From: Mansonella perstans
Lineage: Eukaryota; Nematoda; Chromadorea; Rhabditida; Onchocercidae
DNA: 64,000 nt
Direction: 5' to 3'
Assembly (NCBI GenBank): GCA_037074765.1
Contig: JBAMDO010000219.1
Location: forward strand, 1-64,000
Position numbers and translations under genes: made by a program. The notes under the pieces were generated by a model. That model saw only the letters and a list, made by a program, of their open reading frames with translations, did no database searches and was not told the DNA's origin. Numbering within the stretch: the first letter of the stretch is position 1; every line of letters begins with the position of its first letter. Shown piece after piece: positions 44,739 through 49,400 of this stretch.

Positions 44739-46568
44739 ATGGCATATATCATTTGGTTCAGCATTTTCCTTTGCATCGCTTCAGCTCGGAAGAAATCCTC
44801 CTCGACACCTAATCCCAACAATGATGGCATTAATTCTAATTCACAAAATGCCGTGCCTATTTATCTTCGCCAACTTGCTGCCTCAGACACCTCATACCAA
44901 GATGCAATGGTAATTCAACCGAATCACATAAGCGATAATCTCTTCTCAGATGACTATAATGTCCTCGATCACATGCATTTGGAGTCAATTCTTGGCTCAG
45001 ATACAGGTGCATATAACAATGAATGGAGAAATATTGATGAAGAACCGCTAGAAACGAGTGATGACATTGATTTCATCCGGAAAATTGTCGAGGATAACAA
45101 TTCACCACTAAGTGATCCTGAAACAGCTGCTTTCTCCAGAGAAACTGTCGACAATTTCGATTTATCACTATTTGATCCAGACAGAAATGCACATGACAGT
45201 GGATGGAGAAATACTGTTGGCGAATTACCGGGAACAAGTGGTAAAGAACTGCGTAATTACTTTTCGTTCAATACTTTAAAATTGTTTAATTTGATTTACT
45301 TGTTTAAAATTAAGAGTGCAGGCCATAAAAAGTCGTAAGCAAAAACTGATCTATTTGACACTTATTTGTTGTGAAAGACTATTCCATCAAAAACAACACT
45401 AAGGCCAACTTTTAATTTCCAATACTCGGTAGGAAAAGTAAACAACGTCGAGTAATTCAAGTCAAAATGTGATTTGGCAGGTTTAGTATACGACACTGAG
45501 ATTCTTATGATCAACTTTTAGATTGCTAAAATAAATTGGCAAACGAATAATAGAATGTTAATTGAAAAAATATGCAATAATTGTGTTTCTTCAGATGAGA
45601 AAAGGTACAATGCGAGTATGAAGAAGAGAAAGGAATACATAAAACTTAAAAAAAGAAAGAGGACAAGAAGCCATTTCGTTTTGAATGCAAACATTGTGGC
45701 GATTTCTTTACACGTAAGCAATCACAGGAAAGACATGAACAAAAGTGTCGCGGAGTAAATAGTAAGTTTTGTAGTTTTATATTTGTCCCCGAAATATAAT
45801 GCATGTGAAATATTTTGCAAAGCATCGCTGATGTGGAATAGCAATAAAAAATTCTCCTCCATGAAGAGTCAGCTATTGGTCCCGTAATAACCAATGAATT
45901 TAGAAAGAATTTTTTCAAAAAAAATTTAAATTTGATCCTTTTACTCGAAAATGTGAGTTCGAGGAAATGAGCAACGAAAATTGAAAGTGATCCGATCGCA
46001 AGATAAATTGTAATGACAAAAGTCATATCAGAGTTCTTCAGATAAGCATGACGATTTTTATCCAGGATGTACTGCGACTATGATGGATAGAATGGAATAT
46101 ATAAAACATAAGAGTGGGCACGAGAAACCATTTTGTTATGAATGCAAAGAACCCGACTGTTGGCGAATATTCAACAGTTTAAAAGGACTTTATCAACACG
46201 TGAAAAACACCAATTTAAATTTCAATGCAAAAACTGTTTCAAAAACATATAACAATGAATGGAGAAATATTGATGAAGAATATAACAATGAATGGAGAAA
46301 TATTGATGAAGAACCGCTAGAAACGAGTGATGACAGTGATTTCATCCGGAAAATTGTCGAGGATATCAATTCACCACTAAGCGATCCTGAAACAGCTGCT
46401 TTCTCCAGAGAAACTGTCGACAATTTCGGTTTATCACTATTTGATCCAAACACAAATGCGCATGACAGTGGATGGAGAAATACTCAATGCAAAAACTGTT
46501 TCAAAGTCTTCAGACGCAAAGATAGCTTGAGAAAACACCAGAATAAGTATCACTGGACACCCTGTTAG
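44739..46568 (+). CDS. secreted C2H2/C2HC zinc-finger protein
   Basis: Three exons join in phase: 44739-45240, 45660-45761, 46042-46568; about 376 residues. The start gives a good signal peptide (MAYIIWFSIFLCIASA) followed by a polar, acidic region of about 150 residues. Exon 2 carries a C-x2-C-x12-H-x3-C finger (C177, C180, H193, C197). Exon 3 carries a TFIIIA-like finger lacking its first Cys (FYPGC...HKSGH), a second C-x4-C-x12-H finger (CKEPDC...YQH) whose last His is lost to a frame change, then a copy of part of exon 1, then an intact C-x2-C-x12-H-x4-H finger (CKNCFKVF...KHQNKYH). A secretory signal on a zinc-finger protein is odd; fingers may work outside the nucleus, or the first exon may be wrongly joined. 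The exon 2 acceptor (AAAGAAAG) is weak; donors GTAAAG and GTAAGT are good. I know no exact family. Confidence 0.6.
45010..45215. repeat. source copy of the intragenic duplication (exon 1)
   Basis: The 206 bp encoding YNNEWRNIDEEPLETSDD... through DSGWRNT are nearly identical to 46246-46484, apart from a 33-bp internal duplication and about nine substitutions. The few differences imply a recent event or ongoing conversion. Confidence 0.9.
46246..46484. repeat. inserted copy inside a zinc finger
   Basis: Copy of exon 1 sequence with the first 33 bp (YNNEWRNIDEE) tandemly doubled (about 46247-46279 and 46280-46312). Identical 21-bp direct repeats (46223-46243 and 46485-46505), encoding the first half of a finger (QCKNCFK in one frame), flank it. 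This looks like an insertion into the finger with target duplication. Confidence 0.9.
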
Positions 46569-46842: not shown

Positions 46843-47099
46843 ATAATCAGTATGACTGTCCTTATCCCGGATATATCGTCGATGATGGATCAAACGGAAT
46901 ATAGAAAACATAGGACAGGACACGAGAAAGCATTTCGTTATCAGTGCAAACGACCCGGTTATGGGAAAGAATTCGCTGGGAAATCAACATTTTCCAGATA
47001 CATGGAAGAAAAACTTCAACCTGAAATTCAGTGCGAAATTTGTCGCCAAGTCTTCACCCTTAGAGATGAATTGGAAAGCCATGAGCGTTAATGTCGCGG
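46843..47099 (+). pseudogene. decayed second zinc-finger module
   Basis: After TTTTTCAG the sequence parallels exon 3 of the upstream gene (ATAATCAGTATGACTG versus ATAAGCATGACGATT; then HRTGHEKAFRYQC versus HKSGHEKPFCYEC). The first finger starts in one frame (YDCPYPGY) and continues in another. The second has lost its second Cys (CKRPGYGKEF) and its His (SRY). The third is C-x2-C-x12-H (CEICRQVF...ESH) but stops at TAA two residues after His, where the paralogue has AAG before the last Cys. The missing ligands, frameshift and stop mark it as a decaying duplicate. Confidence 0.65.
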
Positions 47100-47315
47100 A
47101 TTACACAGTTAGTTCCTCAATTCTGCATTTGCTTATCTGAATTAGAATGAAAATATTTTTCAAAATATCGAAGACTTGATAGGCCAAAGTCTTCTTTGAC
47201 GTTTATCATTTTTTCTTTTTTTTTCTTTTTTAAAATTTTCTTTTTTTCCTTTAGTGCTTGTGGTAGTATCAACTTAAAAAATGTTTGTCCCAGACCTGGC
47301 ATAATTAAATCCACA

Positions 47316-47530
47316 ACTTTGGATTTTCTTCGACAAAGGAAGAGGCTTCGCTTCCGGAGCAAGTGTAATAGCTGATCAAAATTACTGAGGCAATGCAGAC
47401 TTTTCAGACTGTTCCTAACGACTTAAACCACGTATTATTTGGCACTGAAAGAACGAATACCAAAACTAACAGTTATTATAGCAGAAAATTTACAGTTATC
47501 TATTGTGGGGGATCCTTCTATCAGAGGTAA
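47316..47530. repeat. tandem duplication unit 1
   Basis: GATTTTCTTCGAC..GCTTCCGGAGCA..TAGCTGA..GCAGACTTTTCAGA..CACGTATTATTTGGCA..ACAGTTATCTATTG..GATCC matches the segment at about 47843-48052 in order and spacing. The copies are diverged and not obviously coding. It probably records an older duplication of the zinc-finger locus. Confidence 0.65.
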
Positions 47531-47842
47531 CGTTGTGCTTAAAATACGTGTTACATAGTTTCTTAAAATTTAAATCAGTTGAAATTAGTGTGGTAAATTT
47601 AATTTGTGGCACTTATGTTTTATGACCAACTTTGAAATTAAGTTGATTGGCGTGATAGAACTCCTATTTCAAGTATAAATACCATAGCAAGAATTTTTCA
47701 GATGAACGGGGCATAAGTATACTTTTTACTGGGTGTTCTTAGAGCACATAGAGTAAATCCAAGATATAAAACACTTTTACACTACTCGCTTTGGTGAAAT
47801 GTGGTAACATTAAAAAATTTTCATTTAGATCAAACGGAAAGT

Positions 47843-48060
47843 GATTTCGGACATTCTTCGGCAAACACATGAGGTAACGAAACTTCCGGAATAGGGGCAC
47901 TAGCTGACTGATGTATTAGTGCAGACTTTTCAAAATATTTTGATGTTTCGGATGATCACTAGCACGTATTATCTGGCATTAAAAAAAATGAAAACTAGTA
48001 GTGATCATGTTACAGCTACAAATTCACAGTTATCTGTTCGAGAGTGATCCGATACAGCCA
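47843..48060. repeat. tandem duplication unit 2
   Basis: Second unit, about 530 bp downstream of the first: GATTTCGGACATTCTTCGGC..ACTTCCGGAATAG..TAGCTGA..GCAGACTTTTCAAA..CACGTATTATCTGGCA..ACAGTTATCTGTTC..GATCC. Confidence 0.65.
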
Positions 48061-49400
48061 ATGTAATTGACTTTAGATGGACCATAACAGGATGCTGTGA
48101 TGCAGTATAATATTTTTTTTTTTTGCGCTTTTTCAAATCCGCTTTTCTATCATTTTAGAATGTTGATATGTTTTTGGGTTTTGAAAATTTTGAAGATAAT
48201 GAACGAAAAAATAAAAAAATTATTCGTTAAAATGTCATTCTCATTGAAATGGATTAGTGAGATAACTGATTTCCCTTTTAATCACAAATCACAAATGACT
48301 TTGAATTGCTTAAACTGTAAATGGAGAAATTTTGATCACATCGATGAAATAAACAATTCAAATCATTCGCATTCTTCATTTGATAAGTTTACATTACTTT
48401 AATTAAATGTACTAAATTTGCGTTCTTCTTAACCGTAAAACAAGACGAAACACAAACAGTCTAGTAATGTGTTCGAAAAGAGAATCTCCTAAAATTGTCT
48501 GGCTTTCTCAACTGCATGGGGATTCAGTGGTGGTGCAAATTTTTATTTAATACGAATTAGAAGGCAATAGAGTCAAAACATCTGGCAGAATGAAAATTCA
48601 CAAATTTATTTACATTTATTGCACGACCTTATCATGAAACGTTTTTGAAAGTTTTTATTTTTTTGATTCTTTTAATATTCAGCGATATTCACAAGGCTGG
48701 AATTTATCAAGAAATTTTTGGGGATTTGCTGAAGAAAGAAACAAAAAATCATGCTTGAAGTGTCTAAATGTAAAGTTTTCTTCTATGTTTTATATTGGTG
48801 GCTTCGTCATTTTATTCCATTCCAATAATGTTTAAAAAAAATACTGGAGAAAAAGTAAGCCTTATAGTATTGCGTGAATATCGCTGGAAAATACTGTACA
48901 TGAAAATGCCGGAAATTAAAAGTATTTCAATATTGCAGCTATTTTTTAAAAATTTAAAAGCAAACATTTGGAAATCATTGTTGAAGTGATTAAATTTTGA
49001 AAATGTTATTTTTTCCAGGCTTTTTATTTCGTGTATCATTTTATTTTAATGCCTTTCACTTGGAATATTAATAAAATGCAAAAATTGCAATCCTATCGTT
49101 CCTAGTTAGTAACTTTGCATCTTCTCTAGGTAAATAATGCTTAAAATTAACTTTTATTGCTGTAAATTTTCTCAGTTTTTCATTTTTAATTGAATAATTC
49201 AAAAATTATGTGTTTGGGGCATGTTTATATTTTAGCAAACCATAACCAATGCTGAATGTTCCTCTAGTCGTAAGATATACTAAGATGACATATGACTCAA
49301 AGAAACATCCAGAATGGTATTTGGTTTTGAAAGATCAAATGGCAAAATAGAAAACTGACCAATACGGAATGCTTTTTAAATGAGAAGAAATAAAAAATTC
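48061..49400 (+). other. possible further eroded zinc-finger locus material
   Basis: The frame at 48097-48402 contains CKWRNFDHIDEINNSNHSHS, which faintly recalls NNEWRNIDEE of the secreted zinc-finger protein. At 48830-48850 the frame reads KKNTGEK, like a finger linker. No intact finger or splice structure remains. This is suggestive only. Confidence 0.2.

What the first reader, a model, noticed from the sequence alone, without database searches (positions are those of the whole stretch)
46223..46505. Exon fragment copied into a zinc finger with 21-bp flanking direct repeats
A 206-bp piece of exon 1 (45010-45215) reappears at 46246-46484 inside the coding sequence of a C2H2 finger 1.2 kb downstream. 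The finger half-site at 46223-46243 is exactly repeated at 46485-46505, so the copy sits between target duplications, yet it carries no transposon ends. The donor piece does not start or end at exon boundaries, so this is a DNA-level copy such as templated repair. It adds an acidic block to the finger exon while keeping one long open frame. This is a direct snapshot of new protein architecture arising.
Basis: partly seen in the sequence, partly recalled or inferred. Interest (0 to 1): 0.75.

Follow-up and report, generated by a model that had tools for sequence, protein, structure and literature searches.

The report
Repair-made exon copy in decaying gene
In a worm-like genome, a 205-base piece of one exon was pasted into another exon of a zinc-finger gene, most likely by error-prone DNA repair; the copy looks real and was seen only in this gene, but the gene appears broken, so it is probably a repair scar rather than a new protein design.

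Summary
A 205-nt exon 1 piece (45011-45215) recurs at 46280-46484, its first 35 nt recur again at 46246-46280, and the copy sits between exact 22-nt repeats (46222-46243, 46484-46505). The gene belongs to a largely arrayed family of about 25 C2H2 loci in a nematode-like genome. All 23 paralogous finger exons that I aligned have the empty site with one counterpart of the flank, so the insertion is derived and, among the copies found, unique. Best explanation: one templated insertion during repair of a staggered break, or an equivalent template switch, with a 33-nt jump back, 2 nt of filler and 1 nt of junction homology, a known class of event. The 'new protein architecture' reading is weak: the two flank copies are read in different frames, the open frame depends on an upstream length change that offsets the insertion, exons 2 and 4 are out of frame with stops, and two of three fingers in exon 3 lack a zinc ligand. 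The gene's present exon 1 is not clearly the donor. Modest interest.

The parts
44739..45240 (+). Exon 1 (hydrophobic N-terminus by eye, then acidic region), open frame; contains the donor-type piece
   Evidence: 27 own-genome matches, self and the insert included
45010..45215 (+). Donor-type piece of exon 1
   Evidence: 45011-45215 vs 46280-46484, 97%; 45010-45044 vs 46246-46280, 100%
44739..45330 (+). Stretch in which this gene is more like five C325/C394/C357/C424 genes (92-100%) than two C323/C536 genes (85-96%), although its upstream flank resembles C323/C536 (86-89%): probable gene-conversion tract. Edges uncertain: beyond 45330 the two groups score alike, and at 44812-44813 the gene has the C323-type bases
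45595..45761 (+). Exon 2 (finger), 167 nt, out of frame relative to most paralogs, stop near its end in the exon 1 frame
46042..46563 (+). Exon 3 (three C2H2 fingers in paralogs), 522 nt, open, interrupted by the insertion; fingers 1 and 2 each lack one zinc ligand, finger 3 intact
46222..46243 (+). Left copy of the 22-nt target duplication
   Evidence: family D9; one counterpart in 23 of 23 aligned paralogs
46244..46245 (+). Two-base filler at the left junction
   Evidence: Sequence
46246..46280 (+). First stretch of the insert, copy of 45010-45044
   Evidence: family D2, 100%
46280..46484 (+). Second stretch of the insert, copy of 45011-45215 after a 33-nt jump back (one base shared with the first stretch)
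46484..46505 (+). Right copy of the 22-nt target duplication (T at 46484 shared with the insert end)
46843..47107 (+). Exon 4 (finger), 265 nt, out of frame with early stop

Best explanation
A single templated-insertion event during break repair in the germ line. Shown: a target with one flank copy became flank - 2-nt filler - 35 nt of exon 1 sequence - jump back of 33 nt - 204-205 nt of exon 1 sequence - flank, with 1 nt of homology at the right junction. Inferred: a break with staggered ends about 22 nt apart was filled in on both sides (giving the duplicated flank), and one end copied from an exon 1, slipped back once on its template, and was joined; a replication fork switching template and re-entering 22 nt upstream would leave the same scar. 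The template was an exon 1 of this gene family, this gene's own earlier exon 1 or a paralog's. The insertion lies in a degenerating family member that stands alone on its contig as far as the searches show, is most likely not translated as a new domain, and is a repair scar that happens to leave exon 3 open.
For: Exact 22-nt flank at both edges and the internal 33-nt repeat. Empty site in 23 of 23 aligned paralogous exons; 21 of 22 own-genome matches to the whole segment cover only the exon 1 piece, and all of these lie in exon 1-type places, so no mobile element was found. Fill-in of overhangs giving duplications is described in PMC8355091 (passages) and iterative template switching in C. elegans in PMC8654963 (passages). 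Decay: exon 2 167 nt with stop, exon 4 265 nt with stops; the first Cys of finger 1 is kept in 16 of 16 in-frame paralogs but lost here, and the last ligand of finger 2 is lost here and in 2 of 16. A stop-free insert needs no selection: 77% of 20,000 simulations with 6 random substitutions stayed stop-free.
Against: Exon 3 is open over 522 nt, entered and left in frame, which chance should give in a minority of cases. Exon 1 is intact. Exon 2 could be skipped without a frame change (introns phase 1), and two paralogs (C536_810, C394) gave no exon 2 match. Out-of-frame exons are not rare in the family where I could score them: exon 2 in 3 of 18 others, exon 3 in 3 of 19, exon 4 in 7 of 11, four of these C325-type with a similar short exon 4; some may be assembly errors or tolerated. 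The C. elegans inserts described in PMC8654963 typically map to break-flanking sequence; a 205-nt copy from 1 kb away or another locus is longer-range. The review PMC3443670 notes that long inserts from end joining may not often be flanked by direct repeats (passage).
Confidence: 0.72

Rival explanations
1. New working architecture: the insertion, offset by the upstream length change, added an acidic linker before finger 3 and the product is made from transcripts that skip exon 2.
For: Exon 3 open over 522 nt; introns phase 1, so skipping keeps frame; two paralogs show no exon 2 match between exon 1 and exon 3; a truncated acidic exon 1 piece follows a finger exon in three array units.
Against: Exons 2 and 4 broken, ligands lost in two of three fingers; an open insert is expected without selection; only 3 changes private to the insert, by my reading 2 of them replacing an amino acid, so no sign of constraint and no power to see it.
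Confidence: 0.1
2. Retroposition: a fragment of the family's mRNA was reverse-transcribed into a nick by a non-LTR element's machinery, giving the 22-nt target duplication.
For: Length of the target duplication; the insert lies inside one exon, so it cannot tell RNA from DNA; human class 1 templated insertions have such duplications (PMC5110952, passages).
Against: No poly(A), not the 3' end of the mRNA, an internal 33-nt jump back, 2-nt filler and 1-nt homology at the junctions.
Confidence: 0.09
3. Assembly artefact: exon 1 sequence wrongly placed in exon 3.
For: The family is repetitive and some copies are nearly identical; several paralogs carry single-base length differences typical of either decay or sequencing error. 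No reads were available.
Against: At 3 sites the insert has a base found in none of the other 21 aligned copies (one has a gap at one site), and at 4 more it differs from this gene's exon 1 in a base that other copies carry; the duplicated 22-nt flank and 2-nt filler are not what a mis-join makes.
Confidence: 0.05
4. Old domain organisation retained here and lost by the relatives.
For: None found.
Against: 23 of 23 aligned paralogous exons have an empty site with one counterpart of the flank; loss would have to remove insert and one flank copy cleanly, repeatedly or very early.
Confidence: 0.02

Closest known systems
Templated insertions at double-strand breaks (polymerase theta end joining; C. 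elegans HELQ-1 study PMC8654963, passages seen)
   Same: Copied sequence, about one base of junction homology, iterative copying from one template
   Different: Those typically map to break-flanking sequence and sit at deletions; here 205 nt come from an exon about 1 kb away or from a paralog, and the target is duplicated rather than deleted
Fill-in duplications at breaks with complementary overhangs (PMC8355091, passages; Vaughn and Bennetzen 2014, rice, seen only as a reference title there)
   Same: A short direct repeat of the target made by fill-in of staggered ends
   Different: Here a templated patch lies between the two copies
Templated sequence insertion polymorphisms of humans (PMC5110952, passages)
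   Same: Genomic fragment copied to a new site without mobile-element ends
   Different: Mixed features: a target duplication as in class 1, but junction homology and filler without poly(A) as in class 2
Introns gained by insertion at staggered breaks, Daphnia (via the review PMC3443670, passages)
   Same: Insert flanked by short direct repeats within a coding region
   Different: Here the insert is copied coding sequence inside an exon, not an intron
C2H2 proteins of filarial microfilariae: in secretions (PMC2569413), as transcripts with predicted signal peptides (PMC2874553), in the secretory cell (PMC10319439); passages
   Same: Multicopy C2H2 genes with an N-terminal signal-like stretch (by eye here) in a nematode
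   Different: Sequence relationship not tested; no filarial protein was found to compare

Membership tests
Templated insertion at a repaired break | Insert near-identical to another genomic sequence, absent in the ancestral site | tested here: met
   97% to exon 1 copies; 23 of 23 aligned paralogous sites empty
Templated insertion at a repaired break | Microhomology, filler or template jumps at junctions | tested here: met
   1 nt at the right junction, 2-nt filler at the left, 33-nt jump back (read)
Templated insertion at a repaired break | Dependence on a repair polymerase | not testable with these tools
   Needs mutants
Transposon or retroposed copy | Element ends, poly(A) or dispersed copies | tested here: not met
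   All 22 matches are the segment itself or exon 1-type places; no tail in the sequence
Functional C2H2 protein of this family | Intact reading frame through the exons and zinc ligands | tested here: not met
   Exons 2 and 4 out of frame with stops; two of three fingers in exon 3 lack a ligand, one is intact. Exon skipping not tested
Filarial secreted C2H2 family | Sequence homology to named filarial proteins | tested here: inconclusive
   Two protein searches gave no match at E <= 0.001 (47 and 23 candidates); how many nematode proteins the database holds was not checked

The most novel reading that the evidence does not exclude
The finger exon of this family is a hot spot of ectopic templated repair, and the insertion is an extreme by-product of the process that diversifies the fingers. 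Among 10 genes of the C325/C357/C424 arrays exon 3 is less alike (median 91.2%, 45 pairs) than introns 2 and 3 (97.0% and 96.5%), with silent differences as high as replacement ones (dS 0.091, dN 0.088; 36 pairs). That points to imported tracts rather than selection on single sites alone. Against it: exon 2 (91.7%) and intron 1 (94.3%) also vary, and in the five C323-type genes intron 3 (93.1%) is less alike than exon 3 (95.5%).
Probability: 0.15. Interest if true: 0.6.

Novelty: new member of a known kind. Interest (0 to 1): 0.27.

Why it matters
It is a readable natural example of one repair event (target duplication, filler, template jump) with an in-genome control set of empty sites. It cautions that an open reading frame across an insertion is not evidence of a new protein: here the frame holds through two offsetting length changes in a gene broken elsewhere. 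If the family's finger exons really exchange tracts by such repair, that would be a route to diversity in a multicopy family that may be secreted.

Tried and rejected
Transposon: rejected, no copies beyond exon 1-type places in the own-genome search (its first look skips very common words). tRNA: none in the window (a bacterial-code scan). Rfam: one mir-44 hairpin above threshold. Naming the donor: the tree and AU tests (insert with own exon 1 p 0.237, insert with C325:20242 p 0.234) favour but do not prove an older or other exon 1. Selection on the insert: only 3 private changes, no power. Pfam on exon 1: nothing above its cut-off; exon 3: zf-C2H2 above cut-off.

Rows left out: of 40 scored matches to the left part of exon 3 (50 candidates), one is the window and 23 others were aligned; the remaining 16 were not (several are exon 4 or partial matches; one, C357:21607-21877, matched the empty-site query end to end). 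In one search, of 21 genes taken (window included), exons were scored only where my splice-site patterns were found; one search used the 16 in-frame exon 3s of 19 others; one search compared 7 paralogs; one search used 15 genes of the 21.

Full report
OBSERVATION. The repeat search and the sequence confirm the finding: 45011-45215 recurs at 46280-46484 (97%), 45010-45044 recurs exactly at 46246-46280, and one 22-nt sequence stands at 46222-46243 and 46484-46505. Reading the junctions: left flank, two filler bases, exon 1 sequence from 45010 to 45044, a jump back of 33 nt, exon 1 sequence on to 45215, right flank, with one T shared by insert end and flank. No poly(A) or terminal repeats are seen by eye.

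CONTEXT. The genome (G000, 75.7 Mb, 539 contigs; window GC 23-34%) is nematode-like: a full-length mir-44 hairpin lies at 49239-49323 minus (67.6 bits). That the mir-44 family is confined to nematodes is recalled, not tested. The gene is one of a family: 27 own-genome matches to exon 1 (self and insert included) and 40 scored matches to the left part of exon 3 (self included), lower bounds, mostly in arrays on contigs C325, C357, C424, C323, C264 and C536. Exon mapping (stitching of loci without conflict) gives exons 1-4 with phase 1 introns in the members that read through. A donor-like site after exon 4 suggests further exons, which I did not follow.

THE SITE IS EMPTY ELSEWHERE. I aligned 23 paralogous exon 3 stretches with the window's exon. 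All 23 run through the place of insertion with one counterpart of the flank and no insert; three (L024, L025, L029) have a 6-nt length difference of their own there, and L031 ends a few bases past it. In the own-genome search with the whole 283-nt segment, 21 of 22 matches cover only the exon 1 piece. The insertion is therefore derived and, among the copies found in this assembly, unique.

FRAME AND STATE OF THE GENE. The flank-to-flank spacing is 262 nt, not a multiple of three. The first flank copy is read in another frame than the second, and the open exon goes with a length difference in an A run just upstream, where this gene departs from its relatives. Finger 2 is left without its last ligand (missing also in 2 of 16 in-frame paralogs); finger 1 has lost its first Cys (kept in 16 of 16), and finger 3 is intact (Pfam zf-C2H2). 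Exon 2 is 167 nt with a stop at its end in the exon 1 frame; exon 4 is 265 nt with an early stop. Among other members, where the exon could be scored, out of frame are exon 2 in 3 of 18, exon 3 in 3 of 19 and exon 4 in 7 of 11, four of the last being C325-type genes with a similarly short exon 4. So length changes, by decay, assembly error or tolerance, are common in the family. Read conventionally, translation would end in exon 2 and the insert would not be translated. Skipping exon 2 would keep the frame; I cannot exclude it, and two members (C536_810, C394) gave no exon 2 match.

DONOR AND AGE. The insert differs from this gene's exon 1 at 7 of 205 sites and from C325:20242 also at 7. At 4 of the 7 it has a base carried by other copies: 45067 (all 9 outgroup copies and 3 of 11 others of the close group), 45097 (6 of 9 outgroup), 45184 (3 of 8) and 45191 (5 of 8). 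At 3 (45113, 45160, 45180) its base is seen in none of the other 21. Since the outgroup disagrees at three of the four sites, this is suggestive only. The tree sets the insert outside the group of 12 exon 1 copies that includes this gene's own (support 93/85, not starred); insert plus own exon 1 as a pair is not rejected (p-AU 0.237), nor insert plus C325:20242 (p-AU 0.234). Against five C325-type genes this gene scores 93-98% over 44739-44900, 99-100% over 44901-45010, 97-99% over the donor stretch, 92-100% over the last 25 nt of exon 1 and 94-96% over the first 90 nt of intron 1; against two C323/C536 genes the same stretches score 85-96%. Yet its 5' UTR scores 74-76% against the first set and 91% against the second, and its upstream flank matches only the second (86-89%). 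From 45331 on the two sets score much alike. So exon 1 was probably replaced or homogenised by conversion, with uncertain edges. The donor-copy identity is thus not a clock, and the donor may have been an earlier exon 1 of this gene or a paralog.

IS IT AN ARTEFACT? Bases found in no other copy, filler and a duplicated target argue against a mis-join, but no reads were available.

MECHANISM. Shown: the parts and their order. Inferred: fill-in of a staggered break and templated synthesis with one slip back. Fill-in of complementary overhangs producing duplications is described in mouse cells (PMC8355091, passages), and iterative template switching in C. elegans (PMC8654963, passages). Inserts between direct repeats at staggered breaks are also proposed for Daphnia introns, though the review adds that long end-joining inserts may not often have such repeats (PMC3443670, passages). 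Human templated insertions fall in two classes (PMC5110952, passages), and this case mixes their marks.

SELECTION. With 6 random substitutions the insert stays stop-free in 77% of 20,000 simulations (73% with 7, 84% with 4), so openness of the insert is no evidence of constraint. Three private changes cannot show selection either way.

FAMILY. Several C2H2 proteins were found in secretions of Brugia microfilariae (PMC2569413), many C2H2 transcripts with predicted signal peptides are raised in B. malayi microfilariae (PMC2874553), and expanded C2H2 subgroups are specific to its secretory cell (PMC10319439); I saw passages only. Whether the window family is that family was not testable: protein searches gave no match. 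The signal-like N-terminus was judged by eye.

VERDICT. A real, derived, single templated insertion in a probably degenerate gene: a known kind of event, readable in detail, with a weak case for new function.

Noticed in passing
window 49239-49323 (minus): Full-length mir-44 family microRNA hairpin, 67.6 bits.
   Followed up: partly
window 44739-45330: Exon 1 and the start of intron 1 resemble C325-type genes while the upstream flank and 5' UTR resemble C323/C536 genes: probable gene-conversion tract with uncertain edges.
   Followed up: partly
C323:40914, C536:808992, C264:63733 (L062, L060, L063): In three array units a truncated, acidic exon 1 piece follows the previous unit's exon 4 and is preceded by a possible 3' splice site in the right phase (by eye), so it may serve as an internal acidic exon between finger exons.
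   Followed up: partly
C325, C357, C424 arrays: Exon 3 is less alike between 10 members (median 91.2%, 45 pairs) than introns 2 and 3 (97.0% and 96.5%), with dN about equal to dS (36 pairs, 15 with dN above dS); exon 2 (91.7%) and intron 1 (94.3%) vary too, and five C323-type genes do not show it clearly.
   Followed up: partly
C536:809152-810859 and C394:23584-25268: Members in which no exon 2 match was found between exon 1 and exon 3.
   Followed up: no
window 47000-48633: Downstream flank matches stretches upstream of the C536 and C323 genes, there in the opposite orientation to the gene, with an exon 4-like relic.
   Followed up: no
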